From positions 1 through 31,627 of IMG/VR virus record IMGVR_UViG_3300021962_006946: a stretch of 31,627 nt of DNA. The stretch is one strand, 5' to 3'. Of the stretch, positions 1-28,065 are shown piece after piece. Below the pieces are notes generated by a model. It was not told where the DNA came from. It was given only the letters and a program-made list of their open reading frames with translations, and ran no database searches. Source of the DNA: a virus. The translations under genes were made by a program, and so were the position numbers. Every line of letters begins with the position of its first letter. The stretch's first letter is position 1.

Positions 1-375
1 ATTTTTTCGAGGATAGTCTTCATTTTTTGCTCCTAAATATTTTATAGGCATTTTTGTTTTATAGTCATGCTTAACTACTTGTACATCTTTACCAACTTCG
101 CGTAAGTCCCAGAGCTCTGCGATATCGCCACGCACGATCATGTCACCGTCTATGAATATAGCATGACCAGTATAGCTCATAAGATAGGGAACAAGAAATC
201 TAGTATAGATAAAATGATTACTACCATCAGTGTGTGTTTCTGTATAATCTTTGAATAGATTAAGTGCTACAGGTATAATGCTTACTGGCCTGCTGGCGTT
301 TCTAATAATGCTGTTAACGCAGGTATGGTATGCGATTGCTTCTCTAGGATCATATCCAATAAAAATTGGTATCAT
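1..375 (-). CDS. Glycosyltransferase, GT8-like (C-terminus outside window)
   Basis: Read on the minus strand from ATG at 375, the frame stays open for 125 codons to the window edge, so the C-terminal part is missing. The protein starts MIPIFIGYDPREAIAYHTC. Around residues 70-90 it has a hydrophobic strand followed by IFIDGDMIVRGDIAELW. The D-G-D is the metal- and nucleotide-sugar-binding DxD motif of GT-A fold enzymes, and the surroundings resemble glycosyltransferase family 8 and phage relatives. The likely role is transfer of a sugar from a nucleotide sugar in the cytoplasm; the acceptor (LPS, phage protein or DNA) cannot be told. Its ATG overlaps the stop of the upstream methyltransferase (ATGA), so the two are translationally coupled. 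It forms the end of a three-gene unit starting at 1570. Confidence 0.75.
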   Translation of the reverse strand, partial: MIPIFIGYDPREAIAYHTCVNSIIRNASRPVSIIPVALNLFKDYTETHTDGSNHFIYTRFLVPYLMSYTGHAIFIDGDMIVRGDIAELWDLREVGKDVQVVKHDYKTKMPIKYLGAKNEDYPRKN

Positions 376-803
376 GCTTCCCCCACTGATAAAATATAAC
401 CATCGTGTCTAAAATGTGTTACTTTTTTAAAATGATTTCTTAACAAACTATCAATGCTAGTTTCAGTAAATGCTCGCTGCCACTCGGGTTTTTTCTTTAC
501 AATCAACGATAGTATAATAAATTTATCTGCGAATTTTTTAATATTAGACAAAGTAAAATCAGGGTCTTTAAGATATTCTAAAACTCCCAACAACAACCCC
601 ACATCAAACTTTTCATCTAATTTAAAGTCTAAATTTAGATCTACGTGTAAATCGGCAGTGTCAACAACATCAATACCTAAGTATCTAGATGGGTGGCAAA
701 AATCTAAAATTTCTTTGTTCCCACAACCAAAATCTATTATTGATATGTTATCATCGATGTAATCTTTTACAAATAGATTCCGTTGACTCCAAGGATTTTT
801 CAT
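372..803 (-). CDS. SAM-dependent methyltransferase (small class I)
   Basis: 143 residues. Residues about 21-30 read IIDFGCGNKE, the glycine-rich motif I of class I methyltransferases. An acidic residue ends the next strand (LGIDVVD), and FDVGLLLGVLEYLKDP gives motif IV and the following helix, as in Methyltransf_11/23-type enzymes. The domain is short and has no obvious acceptor domain. It overlaps the upstream nucleotidyltransferase-cupin gene and the downstream glycosyltransferase by 4 nt each, so it sits in a coupled sugar operon. Methylation of a sugar intermediate or terminal glycan residue is a plausible inference. A small-molecule or protein substrate cannot be excluded. Confidence 0.7.
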   Translation of the reverse strand: MKNPWSQRNLFVKDYIDDNISIIDFGCGNKEILDFCHPSRYLGIDVVDTADLHVDLNLDFKLDEKFDVGLLLGVLEYLKDPDFTLSNIKKFADKFIILSLIVKKKPEWQRAFTETSIDSLLRNHFKKVTHFRHDGYILSVGEA

Positions 804-1570
804 CTTCTTTCGATATCCTTTTCTTCACATTCAGAACCATATTGTATTTCAATAAGTTTTAACGGTTCATCGGAAGGATTACACAGTTGATGCCATTCAG
901 TTTTCTTTATGAATAAGCTCTGATGTTTATGAAATACTCCAACTAGCTCTTGGTCAGTGCTTTTGTTTATAGTATATACTTCGGCAGTTCCTTCTGCTAT
1001 GAACCAGTGTTCTGATCGATTTTGATGACGCTGCATGCTTAGACATTGGCCTGGATCTACAGTTAATTCTTTTACTTTAACTTCTTTGCCGTTTTCATGT
1101 AGCACACGATAATATCCCCAAGGCCTTTCGGTCTTTGGTGCCTTCCATTCTTGTAAAATCCAGCTACTAGAATTTTTCTTATCTTCGCCACCGACTCCAA
1201 ATACAAAGTCTAAGTGAAGCATTTCTTGAAGCAAGTTCATCTCTGGGATGTTTTCTTTTGTTCTGTCTCCGCCGTTGGCAAAGATGATTTGAGCATGTGG
1301 GTGAATCGCTCTGACTTTCTTAATGGCGTTGTTGGCACTATTATCGCTGTCATCAAAGTTAATAACTCGATCAACATTATGAAGTGCGGCAATGATAGTT
1401 GCACGTTCTTCCCAGGGCATGAACTCTTGCCCTTTCTTTCGACGTAGCCACTCGTCGGAGTTTACACCGACAATTAACGAATCGCCAAGTTCTCTAGCTG
1501 CGTTAATGTAGGCAATGTGCCCGGAGTGAAGAGGATCAAATCCGCCAGTAATTAAAACAATCTTTTTCAT
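800..1570 (-). CDS. HldE/TagD-type nucleotidyltransferase fused to a ManC-type cupin
   Basis: 256 residues in two domains. Residues 1-135 are a cytidylyltransferase-like domain: VLITGGFDPLHSGH carries the HxGH nucleotide-binding motif (H15, H18), followed by ARELGDSLIVGVNSDEW, typical of the RfaE/HldE C-terminal domain and TagD. Residues about 147-250 are a cupin like the C-terminal phosphomannose isomerase domain of ManC (RPWGYYRVL, then LSMQRHQNRSEHWF). H182, E187 and H227 could bind metal; the second His of the usual HxH is replaced by Asn184, so metal binding may be altered. The enzyme probably activates a sugar phosphate as an NDP-sugar and isomerises or binds a related sugar. It is the first gene of a minus-strand unit, with no Shine-Dalgarno sequence and a TAAATA box 5 nt before the ATG. 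Confidence 0.8.
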   Translation of the reverse strand: MKKIVLITGGFDPLHSGHIAYINAARELGDSLIVGVNSDEWLRRKKGQEFMPWEERATIIAALHNVDRVINFDDSDNSANNAIKKVRAIHPHAQIIFANGGDRTKENIPEMNLLQEMLHLDFVFGVGGEDKKNSSSWILQEWKAPKTERPWGYYRVLHENGKEVKVKELTVDPGQCLSMQRHQNRSEHWFIAEGTAEVYTINKSTDQELVGVFHKHQSLFIKKTEWHQLCNPSDEPLKLIEIQYGSECEEKDIERR

Positions 1571-1630: not shown

Positions 1631-1975
1631 ATGATTGCTGGAAAAGTATGGGGTCAGACAGAACTGCTTGAAGCCAACGGTGTGTTAGAGTTCCACCGTA
1701 TCGAAGCTAAGAAAGGTGGTGTCTGTTCAAAACACAAACATCAATTTAAATGGAATGGTTTCTTTGTTGAAAAAGGAGCATTAGTTATTAGAGTATGGAA
1801 AAATAACTATGACCTAGTTGACGAAACAGTATTGATGGATGGCATGTATACCAAAGTTGCTCCAGGTGAATATCATCAATTTGAAGCCCTAGAAGATACT
1901 GTTGCTTTTGAATTGTACTGGGCAGAGTTTGATCATGAAGATATAGAAAGAGATTCAGTAGGATTTAAAAAATGA
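1631..1975 (+). CDS. Single-domain cupin protein
   Basis: 114 residues forming one cupin barrel. SKHKHQFKWNGFFVEKG at about residues 33-49 is cupin motif 1, with an HxH pair but no clear Glu at the expected position. VAPGEYHQFEALEDTVAFELYW at about 76-97 is motif 2 with its His. Such proteins act in sugar-nucleotide modification or as non-catalytic sugar binders; the substrate is unknown. The start is supported by AGAGGA upstream. The last codons overlap the ATG of the UDP-sugar dehydrogenase-like gene (ATGA), so the pair is coupled, pointing to a shared nucleotide-sugar job. Confidence 0.7.
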   Translation: MIAGKVWGQTELLEANGVLEFHRIEAKKGGVCSKHKHQFKWNGFFVEKGALVIRVWKNNYDLVDETVLMDGMYTKVAPGEYHQFEALEDTVAFELYWAEFDHEDIERDSVGFKK

Positions 1976-2745
1976 AAATTGGAATTTTTGGATTAGGATA
2001 TGTAGGTTCGGCAGTGGCACATACACACAGATATCAGCACGTTATCGCAAGAGATCCTAAATTAGGAGACCAATCAGCAACGATCAACGATATTAAAACT
2101 TGTGATGCTGTATATATTTGTGTGCCAACACCAATGTTGGAGGACGGACATTGCGACGATTCATATGTTAAATCTGTACTTTTAGAATTGACAGGTTACA
2201 ACAAAATTATCATTTGTAAAAGTACGGTTCCGCCAGGAGTATATTTGAGATTACAAGATCAATATCCTAACCTAGTCCACGCTCCCGAATTCCTCACTGC
2301 CGCAAACGCAACAGAAGATTATGAAACATCTACTTGGGTATTAATCGGTGGAAACTCTAAATTTTGTGAACAGGCAAAACACATAATTTCATCAAGCACT
2401 GTTCAAGCCAAACACTATCACTTCACTGACATAGCATCTGCTAGTCTTTTCAAATATATGGCAAATTCATTTATGGCCGCTAAAGTGACCTTCATGAACG
2501 ATTTATTTCACTTGGCGAAAGCAGTAGGAGTAGAGTGGAATGAGTTAAAAGAAATAGCTAAGAATGATCCTAGATTAGGGACTAGTCATTGGGATGTTCC
2601 GGGGCCCGATGGACAGTTTGGTTATGGCGGTGCTTGTTTTCCTAAAGACGTTGCTGCTATTGTTGAGCATGGGCTTGATGTAGGTACACCGCAAAAATTA
2701 TTAGAATCTGTTAAAGAAATTAACAAATTACATAGAAACTTATAA
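1972..2745 (+). CDS. UDP-glucose/GDP-mannose dehydrogenase-like protein lacking the C-terminal domain
   Basis: 257 residues, whereas the family is usually about 390-450. The N-terminal NAD-binding Rossmann fold has GLGYVGS at 7-13 and VYICVPTP at 48-54. The central domain has K161 and N165 (LFKYMANSF) and the catalytic cysteine in GGACFPKD (C222, D226). These residues oxidise the UDP-sugar C6 alcohol to a carboxylate in UGDH, UDP-ManNAc dehydrogenase and GMD. The protein ends soon after the catalytic Cys, so the C-terminal UDP-binding domain is absent. No remnant is visible downstream, where an opposite-strand methyltransferase overlaps the last 6 nt. It may be a compact phage form with altered substrate binding, or work with a partner. 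Confidence 0.85.
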   Translation: MKIGIFGLGYVGSAVAHTHRYQHVIARDPKLGDQSATINDIKTCDAVYICVPTPMLEDGHCDDSYVKSVLLELTGYNKIIICKSTVPPGVYLRLQDQYPNLVHAPEFLTAANATEDYETSTWVLIGGNSKFCEQAKHIISSSTVQAKHYHFTDIASASLFKYMANSFMAAKVTFMNDLFHLAKAVGVEWNELKEIAKNDPRLGTSHWDVPGPDGQFGYGGACFPKDVAAIVEHGLDVGTPQKLLESVKEINKLHRNL

Positions 2746-25143: not shown

Positions 25144-25406
25144 AACTATCTATTACTAAAAGTAAAAATTTTATCAGCGATTGCCAGCGATACGAACAAG
25201 CAATCAAAGAAACTAAAGATTTAGAATTAGAAAGTCTTTACAAAAGATTTATCTCACAGGCTAAATCGCTAGATGCGTCAACAGACTCTATAGAAATCTT
25301 TTCTAATGTTGCTCGTCAAACAGAAGAAAGAAATAGATTAAAATCTCTAAGAGTTGATTTAGAAAAAAGAATCACAACGTTGAAAGAAAAGCTTCAACGG
25401 TCATAA
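25140..25406 (+). CDS. Small coiled-coil protein
   Basis: 88 residues, almost wholly helical and charged, with heptad-like spacing in the C-terminal half (ERNRLKSLRVDLEKRITTLK). No cysteines in a motif, membrane segment or catalytic site except a single Cys near residue 15. It ends the plus-strand gp14-gp15 unit. Its last 35 nt are also coding for HldD on the other strand. It could be a chaperone or small assembly factor; unknown. Confidence 0.6.
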   Translation: MKLSITKSKNFISDCQRYEQAIKETKDLELESLYKRFISQAKSLDASTDSIEIFSNVARQTEERNRLKSLRVDLEKRITTLKEKLQRS

Positions 25407-26262
25407 AATCATAATCTCCTAAAATTTTATAAAGTTCAGTATTATCTGAACAGGTATATTTCTGATATTGATTTATCAGATTACTAGGAAAATCAACTTC
25501 TTCTATTTCAGCAGAATATTTTTTAGCGATCAATTCGGCAACAGATCGAAACGAAATAGAAGATCCAGTACCTAAGTTAAAAATTCCATTTACATTTTTA
25601 TCGATCATTTTTGTTTTGATCTGTGCTATGTCATCAACACAGATAAAATCTCGTTGGAAATTTTCGCTGTTCTTAAAAACTTTAATCTTACCTGTTTCGA
25701 TCGCCTGTTGTTTGAATTTAGTTATAGGACTGGCTTGATCTTTTTTATGAGATTCGTTGTGTCCGTATACATTGAAATATCTCCATCCTTGTATGCGAGC
25801 ATTGGGATAATCTAATAGTGTAGAGTAGACATATTGATCTATCAACATCTTGCTAGTAGCATATAAAGATCTAGGATTCAAAGGTTGTTTTTCTTTGAAC
25901 GTATTACTATCGCCATAGACAGAAGCAGAACTAGCATATGATAAAGTTAAATTATTTTTAACTGCTTGTTCAATCAACCAATAGCTCGGCTGTAAATTAG
26001 ATTTTTCAATCTTGTCTTGACTAGTTTCTGTAGTTGATGATATCGCACCTTCGTGAAATATAGCTTCCACCTTAAGCCAGTGATCGAAAATTCCGTAAAA
26101 GTTTTCTGGTGAAACTATATTAGAAAATTTTAATTCTTTAATATTATTTTCTTTTCCGCTGTCCAGCTCATCAACAATCAATATATCTGTTATAGATCTG
26201 CGATTTAGTTCTTTTACAATATTAGAACCAATAAATCCTGCTCCGCCGGTTACGATTATCAT
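25372..26262 (-). CDS. hldD: ADP-glyceromanno-heptose 6-epimerase (HldD/RfaD-like)
   Basis: 296 residues, close to bacterial HldD (about 310). MIIVTGGAGFIGSNIVKELN at 1-20 binds NADP; IFHEGAISSTTE at about 68-79 matches the HldD IFHEGACSSTTE signature; YATSK at 134-138 is the catalytic YxxxK. RYFNVYGHNESHKKDQASP, with HK and MAS-like residues, is diagnostic for HldD. It converts ADP-D-glycero- to ADP-L-glycero-D-manno-heptose for LPS inner core. It is the last gene of a five-gene operon with kinase and nucleotidyltransferase, a strong contextual match. It overlaps the HAD gene by 4 nt and the convergent coiled-coil gene by 35 nt. Confidence 0.88.
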   Translation of the reverse strand: MIIVTGGAGFIGSNIVKELNRRSITDILIVDELDSGKENNIKELKFSNIVSPENFYGIFDHWLKVEAIFHEGAISSTTETSQDKIEKSNLQPSYWLIEQAVKNNLTLSYASSASVYGDSNTFKEKQPLNPRSLYATSKMLIDQYVYSTLLDYPNARIQGWRYFNVYGHNESHKKDQASPITKFKQQAIETGKIKVFKNSENFQRDFICVDDIAQIKTKMIDKNVNGIFNLGTGSSISFRSVAELIAKKYSAEIEEVDFPSNLINQYQKYTCSDNTELYKILGDYDFMTVEAFLSTL

Positions 26263-26567
26263 TTAAAAAATTGCTCCGGATGTATAGACTTATCATCGAT
26301 CCATAGGTCATAATGTGGTTTACGTAGTTGGAGACTAGTATATTTTGCTCCCCAGTCAGCCATCTGTTTATGTGTGATTTCGGTTCTATCAATGCCTGAA
26401 CGCGATCCACGTGCTGTGTAGTAATGTATTTCGTGTCCTTCGTCGAATAACTTATTGATTTTAGCTATTCTATCCATATACGGTTTTGTTTTAGCATAAT
26501 CTACATTACCGTCGACATCAAATTCCATAGAACATATAGTGCCGTCAATATCCACGATGTAAATCAT
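26259..26567 (-). CDS. Short HAD-family phosphatase
   Basis: 102 residues. IYIVDIDGTIC at 2-12 holds the nucleophile pair D6/D8 (DxDGT), IHYYTARGSRSG at about 47-58 is motif II with its Thr, and DLWIDDKS at about 87-94 supplies the acidic motif IV. It is minimal, with no cap domain. In heptose synthesis a HAD enzyme, GmhB, removes the 1-phosphate of heptose 1,7-bisphosphate. This protein sits between kinase and epimerase genes and could do that step, though it is shorter than GmhB (about 190). A sugar-phosphate phosphatase of other specificity is the alternative. Confidence 0.7.
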   Translation of the reverse strand: MIYIVDIDGTICSMEFDVDGNVDYAKTKPYMDRIAKINKLFDEGHEIHYYTARGSRSGIDRTEITHKQMADWGAKYTSLQLRKPHYDLWIDDKSIHPEQFFK

Positions 26568-26932
26568 TTTTGACTGTCTCCTGGAATTAATCTGTGATTA
26601 TCTTCGACTGAATCGGCTGTGCTTACTTCAAACACCATCGCACCGTCTGTCATTGCTTCTAATTGGTGTGGTTGTAACGGAGGATTATGCCACGTGTCTC
26701 CTTCGTTTAATTCTTGTTCATATATCTTAGCGTCTTTGGTGTCGATCCAACGCAATTTAAATTTGCCTGAATTTACAAACCAAGTTTCGTCTTTTTTATT
26801 ATGAAAGTGCATAGAAAATTTATTTCCTGCTTTTTCAAACACTAATATTTTCCCGCAGTAAAGATCGTTAGTGGCCCATATAATTTCAAAACCCCAACCT
26901 TTGTTTACTTTTCCAGTTAATCTTTCTGTCAT
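26564..26932 (-). CDS. Mannose-6-phosphate isomerase-like cupin
   Basis: 122 residues, a single cupin. NKFSMHFHNKKDETWFVNSG at about 37-56 is motif 1 with both His of HxH and the Glu. GDTWHNPPLQPHQLEAMTDG at about 77-96 is motif 2 with its His. All metal ligands are present, unlike the cupin fused at 800-1570. The family includes sugar-phosphate isomerases and binding proteins. In this operon it might make the heptose precursor in place of GmhA, but that is speculation. It overlaps both neighbours by 4 nt. Confidence 0.7.
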   Translation of the reverse strand: MTERLTGKVNKGWGFEIIWATNDLYCGKILVFEKAGNKFSMHFHNKKDETWFVNSGKFKLRWIDTKDAKIYEQELNEGDTWHNPPLQPHQLEAMTDGAMVFEVSTADSVEDNHRLIPGDSQK

Positions 26933-27693
26933 TTTATTTCCTCTAATCTTGGAGCATAAACTCCTACGTGTTGTACGGTCACCGCTGATGCTTTGTTAGC
27001 AAACTTTATCGCGTCAGGCATGTGGGTCGTTTCTAAAAATTTATAAACAAGAGCAGCTAAAAATGTATCTCCTGCTCCGCATACATCAGTTACATCACCT
27101 ACTATTTCAGCCGGATAAACCCAGCCGTTCCATTGAGCACCATCTCGCCCATGTGTAACAATTAAATGATCATTGTCGGGCAAATAGCTAGTAGCACGAC
27201 TTTGTTCCAGTTTGTTAATTTTTACATAACAGCCGGCCAGTCGAGCTAGATCTGTTTTCTTTGTGTCGATAAAGATCGGTACATTTACTTCTTTAACTAG
27301 ATCTTCAATAAGATCGTAGGTCACTGTGCCTTTGTTATAATCACTGATCACGATAGCATCATAGACAGGCGGTATCGCTGTTTCAAAGGTAATGGGCGTA
27401 CTTTCAACATCTCGATCTACCCGTAGTATCTGTTGTTTGGTGCGTTCATCAATCAACCTATTTTTCTCGCTGACCCTGTCTTTATCCCTTAGAAAATCAA
27501 CATCGCAGCCTAATGCTTCTAGATTTTTTCGTACATTACCTGCCATACCGTCTTTGTGGATAGTATAGTGTGGTTCGAAAACAGGAACCGGGGCTTCGGG
27601 ACTGATACGGTTTACATACCCATAGGTGTAAACATCGTTACAGTCATCGCCTATTAGTAATATCCTGAATGATTTTTGTTGTAGAATAGTCAT
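26929..27693 (-). CDS. HldE N-terminal-type sugar kinase (PfkB family)
   Basis: 254 residues from ATG 27693 (MTILQQKSFRILLIGDD); ATG 27705 is an alternative four codons upstream. YGYVNRISPEAPVPVFEP near 24-41 matches the HldE kinase signature SRISPEAPVPV, GMAGNVRKNLEALG near 49-62 is PfkB motif 1, and DVTDVCGAGDTFLAAL near 200-215 is PfkB motif 2 with the catalytic Asp in GAGD. HldE phosphorylates D-glycero-beta-D-manno-heptose 7-phosphate at C1. The domain is shorter than the bacterial one (about 318), with compact loops. It begins inside the nucleotidyltransferase gene (50-nt overlap). Bacterial HldE carries both domains in one chain, kinase first; here they are separate and reversed. Confidence 0.85.
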   Translation of the reverse strand: MTILQQKSFRILLIGDDCNDVYTYGYVNRISPEAPVPVFEPHYTIHKDGMAGNVRKNLEALGCDVDFLRDKDRVSEKNRLIDERTKQQILRVDRDVESTPITFETAIPPVYDAIVISDYNKGTVTYDLIEDLVKEVNVPIFIDTKKTDLARLAGCYVKINKLEQSRATSYLPDNDHLIVTHGRDGAQWNGWVYPAEIVGDVTDVCGAGDTFLAALVYKFLETTHMPDAIKFANKASAVTVQHVGVYAPRLEEIK

Positions 27694-28039
27694 ATAGCCT
27701 ATCAAAAAATATAATTTCGTCGCAGACTTCTTGGCCTACGATAGGTTTACCCATGTAATCACTGCCCTTAACCATAATGTCGCAGGCCGCAACGAGATTT
27801 ATGAGTTCTAGATCAGTGTCAAATATCACGACCTCGTCGACTGCTTTTAGATTTTTGAGCATGTGTGCTCGATATCGTTGATTGTTGATTGGTCGAGAAG
27901 ACCCTTTTAAGTGGCGAATGCGATCGTCTGAATCGATGCCAACCATAAGATGGTCTCCTAAACTCTTAGCATAGTTTAAAAGATCAATATGTCCGGGATG
28001 TAATATATCAAAAGAACCGTTAACAAAAATCAGACTCAT
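27644..28039 (-). CDS. HldE C-terminal-type nucleotidyltransferase
   Basis: 131 residues from ATG 28039; ATG 28057 would lie inside the promoter. MSLIFVNGSFDILHPGHIDL at 1-20 contains HxGH (H14, H17), and AKSLGDHLMVGIDSDDRIRHLKG follows the RfaE/HldE C-terminal consensus (LGDRLIVAVNSDxSVRxLKG). Near the end YSTTKIIQDI matches the family YSTTxIIxxI motif. It transfers a nucleotide (AMP in HldE) to heptose 1-phosphate. It leads the heptose operon, and its ATG is 6 nt after a perfect TATAAT, within a hairpin. Confidence 0.85.
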   Translation of the reverse strand: MSLIFVNGSFDILHPGHIDLLNYAKSLGDHLMVGIDSDDRIRHLKGSSRPINNQRYRAHMLKNLKAVDEVVIFDTDLELINLVAACDIMVKGSDYMGKPIVGQEVCDEIIFFDRLYDYSTTKIIQDITNRR

Positions 28040-28065
28040 GCTGTAATTATACAGCAAAGAGTCTG
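28031..28065 (-). terminator. Terminator-like hairpin enclosing -10 box and start codon
   Basis: Minus strand CAGACTC-TTT-GCTGTA-TAAT-TACAGC-AT-GAGTCTG, then ATTTTTGTT: 7-bp and 6-bp stems separated by a small bulge, 4-nt loop and U-rich tail. It lies 12 nt after the stop of the big virion gene, so it could end that transcript. The ATG of the nucleotidyltransferase spans the bulge and the 3' arm. Confidence 0.6.

What the first reader, a model, noticed from the sequence alone, without database searches (positions are those of the whole stretch)
800..1570. HldE-type nucleotidyltransferase fused to a ManC-type cupin
ManC joins a GDP-mannose pyrophosphorylase to a cupin isomerase; here an unrelated HxGH nucleotidyltransferase takes the first place. 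The second His of the HxH metal pair is Asn184. The window holds a second, separate HxGH enzyme in the heptose operon, so the phage carries two sugar-activating enzymes of this class.
Basis: partly seen in the sequence, partly recalled or inferred. Interest (0 to 1): 0.5.

Follow-up and report, generated by a model that had tools for sequence, protein, structure and literature searches.

The report
Likely GDP-mannose enzyme with swapped domain
A gene in this T4-like phage joins the isomerase half of the usual GDP-mannose enzyme to an unrelated nucleotide-transferring half; the same fused gene sits in nearly all sampled SAR11-family bacteria, which lack the usual enzyme, so it is probably an alternative way of making GDP-mannose.

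Summary
Window 800-1570 (-) encodes 256 aa: an HxGH nucleotidyltransferase (NT, residues 1-142) fused to a ManC-type phosphomannose-isomerase cupin (146-255). It is not a one-off: at least 80 IMG/VR contigs carry it full length, and so do 48 of 53 genomes of the Pelagibacteraceae (SAR11) family, behind polA in all 13 checked. Two claims need correction. Asn184 is not a lost metal ligand: the isomerase motif is SxQxH..RxE..H, invariant in 129 cupins except one S-to-T, while residue 184 varies even in ManC. And the pairing is not phage-specific. Context indicates the substrate. In other Alphaproteobacteria the same NT stands alone, in operons cupin-phosphomannomutase-NT (2 genomes), mutase-NT (2 more), and within 2.5 kb of GDP-mannose 4,6-dehydratase (6). 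In two phage contigs the fusion lies just before that dehydratase. None of the 14 NT-bearing genomes in a sample of 289, and none of 53 SAR11-family genomes, has ManC. Best reading: a ManC analogue making GDP-mannose, with an HldE-like NT replacing the GT-A guanylyltransferase. GTP use and both activities are inferred, not assayed. New variant of a known kind.

The parts
800..1570 (-). fused NT-cupin gene (256 aa), predicted bifunctional mannose-6-phosphate isomerase / mannose-1-phosphate guanylyltransferase
1145..1570 (-). NT domain, residues 1-142 (PF01467, HldE-like)
   Evidence: (matches to stand-alone cyanophage relatives end at residue 142)
1517..1528 (-). HSGH signature, residues 15-18 (HxGH)
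   Evidence: H15, G17, H18 invariant in 57 of 57 rows of A1; S16 near-invariant
1154..1174 (-). NSSSWIL, residues 133-139, at the place of the STT motif of HldE
803..1135 (-). type II PMI cupin domain, residues 146-256 (PF01050)
1010..1039 (-). PMI motif S178-M-Q180-R-H182-Q-N-R185-S-E187
   Evidence: 129 cupins; paper passages on Ser95/Gln97/His99/R408
890..892 (-). His227, predicted fourth metal ligand
   Evidence: 129 of 129
372..803 (-). methyltransferase-like gene, coupled to the fusion by an ATGA overlap
1..375 (-). GT8-family glycosyltransferase, cut by the window end, coupled by an ATGA overlap
   Evidence: PF01501 35.3 bits; GT8 relative downstream of the fusion in 57 of 71 phage loci
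27644..28057 (-). second, separate HxGH protein (HldE-C-like), for comparison only

Best explanation
The protein is a bifunctional enzyme of GDP-mannose synthesis that works like ManC but is built from a different nucleotidyltransferase. The C-terminal cupin, with metal held by Gln180, His182, Glu187 and His227, interconverts fructose 6-phosphate and mannose 6-phosphate. A separate phosphomannomutase (of the host, for the phage) makes mannose 1-phosphate. The N-terminal HxGH domain joins mannose 1-phosphate to a nucleotide, most likely from GTP, giving GDP-mannose. In the phage this feeds the glycan genes downstream (methyltransferase, GT8, in some relatives GDP-mannose 4,6-dehydratase). Shown: architecture, conserved motifs, operon neighbours, absence of ManC. 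Inferred: both activities, GTP as the nucleotide, mannose as the sugar, the metal ligands.
For: (1) Split version: the same NT stands alone in 11 Alphaproteobacteria of a 289-genome sample; two have the operon cupin PF01050 - phosphomannomutase PF03332 - NT (G084, G240), two more have PF03332 directly before the NT (G348, G136). PF03332 occurs in 5 of 14 NT-bearing genomes against 6 of 275 others (Fisher p 5e-5). (2) gmd (TIGR01472 over cut-off) lies within 2.5 kb of the NT in G094 (23 bp gap), G235 (gmd-fcl-NT), G331, G348, G136, G084. (3) Phages L080 and L081 have gmd just behind the fusion; in L080 the order is fusion - methyltransferase - gmd (423.8 bits, cut-off 415) - glycosyltransferase. 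(4) ManC over cut-off in 140 of 289 Alphaproteobacteria but 0 of 14 NT-bearing ones (p 7e-5, not corrected for genome size or kinship) and 0 of 53 genomes of the Pelagibacteraceae family, of which 48 have the full fusion and 27 have gmd over cut-off. (5) In G057 (1.348 Mb) E. coli ManC hits only the fusion's cupin, HldE's NT half hits only the fusion's NT, ManA nothing below E 0.6, while a ManB-type mutase (1e-41) and Gmd (1e-113) are present. (6) PMI motif invariant in 129 cupins bar one Thr at S178. (7) NT signature residues invariant in 57 of 57.
Against: No activity has been measured. The NT scores highest among NCBIfam NT models against HldE (84.9 bits, under its cut-off), an ATP-using heptose enzyme. 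The phage cupins end at DIER and lack the last residues (like DxYGR) that E. coli CpsB and the SAR11 forms keep. 26 of 53 SAR11-family genomes have no gmd over cut-off, and two that have it (G020, G059) show no fusion. No mutase was found in 8 fusion-bearing phage records (PF03332, PF02878). PF03332 is absent from the 53 SAR11-family genomes; there the partner would have to be a PF02878 enzyme (24 of the 53 searched). G240, G224 and G093 have the NT but no gmd match at 1e-60; G322 only one below cut-off. Monofunctional guanylyltransferases unlike ManC were not excluded.
Confidence: 0.68

Rival explanations
1. The NT activates another manno-configured or related sugar 1-phosphate (for instance a heptose, with ATP as in HldE), and the cupin isomerises that sugar's phosphate.
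For: Best NT model is HldE domain II (84.9 bits); 37% identity to E. coli HldE-C and 31% to the window's own second HxGH protein; the window also has a heptose cluster.
Against: The NT family separates from the HldE rows in the tree (94/95; several HldE branches are very long); neighbours are PMM and gmd, not heptose genes; no GmhA (PF13580) in 8 fusion-bearing phage records.
Confidence: 0.17
2. The NT works as above but the cupin is a non-catalytic binding or regulatory domain.
For: Phage cupins lack the final residues of ManC cupins; many cupins of the same fold are not isomerases (CapF and others tie with PMI).
Against: All six motif residues are kept (one S-to-T in 129), including across the fast-evolving phage cupins; the split operons place the lone cupin next to PMM; E. 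coli ManA has no match in G057, so another PMI is not evident there.
Confidence: 0.09
3. The NT is a cytidylyltransferase for a polyol or amino-alcohol phosphate (TagD-like), fused to an isomerase of a separate pathway.
For: Structural matches to TagD (1coz Z 15.2, 126 aligned, rmsd 2.5) are as good as to HldC (5xf2_B Z 14.6, 132 aligned, rmsd 2.8).
Against: TIGR01518 only 47.6 bits against a cut-off of 165.4; operon neighbours are GDP-mannose genes.
Confidence: 0.06

Closest known systems
ManC / AlgA / PslB, bifunctional type II PMI - mannose-1-phosphate guanylyltransferase (TIGR01479)
   Same: C-terminal PF01050 cupin, same PMI motif; 39% identity of the cupin half to E. coli CpsB; predicted same pathway, with a mutase acting between the two steps
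   Different: N-terminal half is an HxGH NT (PF01467), not the GT-A guanylyltransferase; 256 aa instead of about 470
HldE domain II / HldC, heptose-1-phosphate adenylyltransferase (TIGR02199)
   Same: HxGH fold, GGD motif, 37% identity to E. coli HldE-C
   Different: separate clade, family motifs NGGDR and VGG..K.N.SS, different neighbours, no kinase half
Stand-alone cyanophage mannose-6-phosphate isomerase (S-SCSM1, PMC9602691)
   Same: type II PMI cupin in a T4-like phage, beside nucleotide-sugar genes
   Different: no NT; 'nucleotidyltransferase' and 'cupin' do not occur in the paper's main text (a word search)
Stand-alone cyanophage NT between gp43 and uvsX (S-SSM7, P-TIM68, S-SCSM2R, Sf-FS3)
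   Same: 46-50% identical to the NT half in those four phages
   Different: no cupin; annotated as heptose kinase/adenyltransferase, glycerol-3-phosphate cytidylyltransferase, cytidyltransferase-like or hypothetical

Membership tests
ManC (TIGR01479) | C-terminal type II PMI cupin with its motif | tested here: met
   PF01050 94.5 bits; motif
ManC (TIGR01479) | N-terminal GT-A mannose-1-phosphate guanylyltransferase domain | tested here: not met
   only positions 358-460 of 467 match, 88.2 bits against 372.95; N-terminal half is PF01467
ManC (TIGR01479) | makes GDP-mannose | not testable with these tools
   inferred from context
type II PMI cupin (PF01050) | score over gathering threshold and S/Q/H/R motif | tested here: met
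   motif meaning from PMC9602691 passages
type II PMI cupin (PF01050) | C-terminal DxYGR-like end seen in CpsB (my own criterion; not a curated one) | tested here: not met
   absent in the window; DDFGR in L088, DDYNR in L092
HldE domain II (TIGR02199) | curated score | tested here: not met
   84.9 bits against 181.5; the window's second HxGH protein also fails at 124.8, so the cut-off is strict for phage proteins
HldE domain II (TIGR02199) | HxGH signature and GGD motif | tested here: met
TagD glycerol-3-phosphate cytidylyltransferase (TIGR01518) | curated score | tested here: not met
   47.6 bits against 165.4

The most novel reading that the evidence does not exclude
The HxGH superfamily has evolved its own mannose-1-phosphate guanylyltransferase, not homologous to the GT-A enzymes, and this fused form is the only PMI/GDP-mannose pyrophosphorylase of most SAR11 bacteria, shared with aquatic T4-like phages that use it to drive their own glycan genes.
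Probability: 0.55. Interest if true: 0.78.

Novelty: new variant of a known kind. Interest (0 to 1): 0.62.

Why it matters
GDP-mannose is made in known organisms by GT-A type guanylyltransferases (recalled). If an HxGH enzyme does it in SAR11, among the most abundant bacteria of the ocean (recalled), then annotation of their surface glycans misses a step: the ManC model finds none (0 of 53). It would also be a clean case of one half of a bifunctional enzyme being exchanged for an unrelated protein doing the same chemistry, and it names the product of a gene that many aquatic T4-like phages carry near uvsX. It is directly testable with one purified protein.

Tried and rejected
Asn184 as a lost metal ligand: rejected. 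Phage-only peculiarity: rejected. Bin contamination by phage contigs: true for L089-L091 (a gp17 relative beside each; L091 read by eye) but not for L088, L092, L093, which sit among chromosomal genes (gene names there read by eye). GmhA-less heptose route through the cupin: GmhA (PF13580) is absent in 8 fusion-bearing phage records, but nothing links the fusion to heptose, so dropped. PF03332 as the universal partner: not so, 0 of 53 SAR11-family genomes and 0 of 8 phage records. Family in a 398-genome phylum-wide sample at E 1e-30: only the centre genome G010, so it is rare outside the groups named. Host of the window's phage: gp17 gives no close isolate (all under 60% identity), so no host is claimed. 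PMC8231724 (passages): its GDP-mannose mention is a table abbreviation; not used. PMC11109978 (passages): irrelevant. A genome-size control for the ManC comparison could not be done because the listing of non-matching genomes is cut. Print: ten searches listed no paper that I recognised as describing this fusion; only open-access PMC papers are held.

Rows dropped: one search reduced 86 full-length hits to 71 distinct sequences plus the window; A1 holds 57 of these 72 after a 93% identity filter; A2 holds 33; the trees used 51 NT rows and 60 of 129 cupins. The NT tree warns that long branches meet; the cupin tree has few columns; neither settles how many times fusion arose.

Full report
What is there. 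The ORF at 800-1570 (-) is exactly as described: 256 aa with PF01467 at 7-102 and PF01050 at 146-255. The AlphaFold2 model, built from 57 window and locus sequences, is confident (mean pLDDT 92.0), but pTM is 0.63 and residues 131-140 average 62, so the placement of the two domains against each other is not settled. The cupin half matches phosphomannose isomerases 7zvy_B (Z 16.5, rmsd 2.1, 108 aligned) and 7zvm (Z 16.3, rmsd 1.7, 102 aligned); CapF cupins at Z 16.0 (rmsd 2.1, 111-112 aligned) are tied with these, so the fold alone does not name the function. The NT half matches 3glv_A (Z 15.9, rmsd 2.1, 121 aligned), TagD 1coz_A (Z 15.2, rmsd 2.5, 126 aligned) and HldC 5xf2_B (Z 14.6, rmsd 2.8, 132 aligned).

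The fusion is a conserved family. The common phage order is gp32 - uvsX - a homologue of the window's 5430-5885 gene - fusion - GT8 glycosyltransferase; a GT8 relative lies within about 1.5 kb downstream in 57 of 71 loci with at least 900 bases of room. The fusion's stop is part of an ATGA overlap in 70 of 79 phage loci, and in the window the fusion, a methyltransferase-like gene and the GT8 gene are coupled in this way. In INPHARED no record covers 80% of the protein; the NT half alone matches stand-alone cyanophage genes up to residue 142, sitting between DNA polymerase and uvsX genes.

It is also a bacterial gene. Genome contigs gave six full-length hits. L088 and L092 (Pelagibacteraceae by record title) carry it directly behind polA in an ordinary chromosome, L093 (SAR116 by title) in another chromosomal place, and L089-L091 are phage contigs in a Rhodobacteraceae bin. 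In the family of the L092 genome 48 of 53 genomes have it full length, one more is cut by a contig end, and four have only weak or no matches. All 13 distinct genomes examined have the order polA - fusion - MFS - PEPCK. In 289 Alphaproteobacteria it is fused in 3 genomes and stands alone as NT in 11; in 398 genomes across the phylum only the centre genome matched at 1e-30. Tree of the NT: the family forms one side of a branch from the five HldE rows (94/95), with fused and stand-alone forms interleaved (7 changes for 6 labels); several rows are long and the number of fusions or fissions is not settled.

The metal site. PMC9602691 (passages) states that type I and II PMIs share a motif with Ser95, Gln97 and His99, and that R408 matters in type II. 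By motif these fall on S178, Q180, H182 and R185. In 129 cupins (17 counted as ManC, one of them a fragment that I assigned to ManC; 8 stand-alone bacterial, 4 stand-alone phage, 100 fused) Q180, H182, R185, E187 and H227 never vary, S178 is Thr once, and position 184 is H 10, Y 4, R 3 in ManC. So the isomerase site looks intact. That E187 and H227 are the other two metal ligands is inferred from their alignment with the cupin pattern of 7zvm. A point against full activity: phage forms end at DIER and lack the ManC-like tail kept by L088 and, in similar form, L092.

What it makes. In G084 and G240 the gene order is lone PF01050 cupin - PF03332 phosphomannomutase - NT, that is isomerase, mutase, nucleotidyltransferase in pathway order (Pfam 93.8 and 109.5 bits for the mutase; NCBIfam names it only HAD-IIB). 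In G348 and G136 the mutase directly precedes the NT. PF03332 is rare: 11 of 289, of which 5 fall in the 14 NT-bearing genomes (Fisher p 5e-5). GDP-mannose 4,6-dehydratase lies within 2.5 kb of the NT in six genomes: G094 (23 bp apart), G235 (gmd, then an ORF whose best model is GDP-L-fucose synthase, 438 bits against a cut-off of 500, then NT), G331, G348, G136, G084. A rough uniform-placement estimate gives about 2e-12 for 6 of 11; related genomes make that too small. In phages, L080 reads fusion - methyltransferase - gmd (423.8 bits, over cut-off) - group 1 glycosyltransferase, each start overlapping the stop before it or 2 bases behind it; L081 has the same gmd match at the same distance; L054 has gmd (406.7 bits, just under cut-off) in the same locus on the other strand; and 2 of 8 larger fusion-bearing phage records have gmd (G002 539.8 bits; G006 410.1, just under cut-off).

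ManC is missing where this family occurs. TIGR01479 passes its cut-off in 140 of 289 Alphaproteobacteria, none of them among the 14 NT-bearing genomes (p 7e-5; NT-bearing genomes are small, 0.8-2.2 Mb, and a size-matched count was not possible). In the 53 Pelagibacteraceae-family genomes no match passes, and the strong matches are all the cupin end, nearly all of the fusion itself; 27 of these 53 have gmd over cut-off. In G057, nearly all of which was searched, E. coli ManC matches only the fusion's cupin (47%, 2e-26), the NT part of E. coli HldE only the fusion's NT (37%, 2e-13), E. coli ManA nothing below E 0.6, while a ManB-type mutase (1e-41) and Gmd (1e-113) are found. Of 24 SAR11-family genomes searched for PF02878 mutases, 20 list two matches, 3 one and 1 none.

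Conclusion. The most economical reading is a ManC analogue: an isomerase cupin and an HldE-like NT, fused, flanking a separate mutase step, giving GDP-mannose. It works like ManC but is not a ManC, because the GT-A domain that defines ManC's first half is absent. It is related to HldE-C in fold and motif but lies outside that family by score and tree. GTP as the nucleotide follows only from the adjacency to gmd. No experiment supports it yet; ten literature searches listed no description that I recognised.

Noticed in passing
window 25372-28057: Heptose cluster with the kinase-like and NT halves of HldE as separate ORFs, plus cupin, HAD-like ORF and HldD (281 bits, over cut-off). No GmhA seen; the cupin could stand in for it.
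   Followed up: partly
L003-L005, L007: Cyanophage stand-alone NT of the same family sits between DNA polymerase and uvsX; in SAR11 the fusion sits behind polA; in other phages near uvsX. The recurrent closeness to DNA polymerase or recombination genes is unexplained.
   Followed up: no
L179, L181 (G012): PF03332 phosphomannomutase near a different, more distant HxGH NT in a Rhodobacteraceae bin (36-41 bits to the NT profile): perhaps a second case of the same pairing.
   Followed up: no
L153, L155, L156: Divergent NT-only genes overlap an upstream ORF that looks like pyrE (by eye); in SAR116 L093 the fusion follows an ORF that looks like pyrC (by eye).
   Followed up: no
window 1972-2745: Nucleotide-sugar dehydrogenase of only 257 aa, matching the N-terminal and central domains but with no C-terminal domain match.
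   Followed up: no
L186 and L006 (marine virus AG-345-D19): Two contigs of one single-cell virus carry the NT alone and the PF01050-type cupin alone, possibly the split pair in one phage.
   Followed up: no
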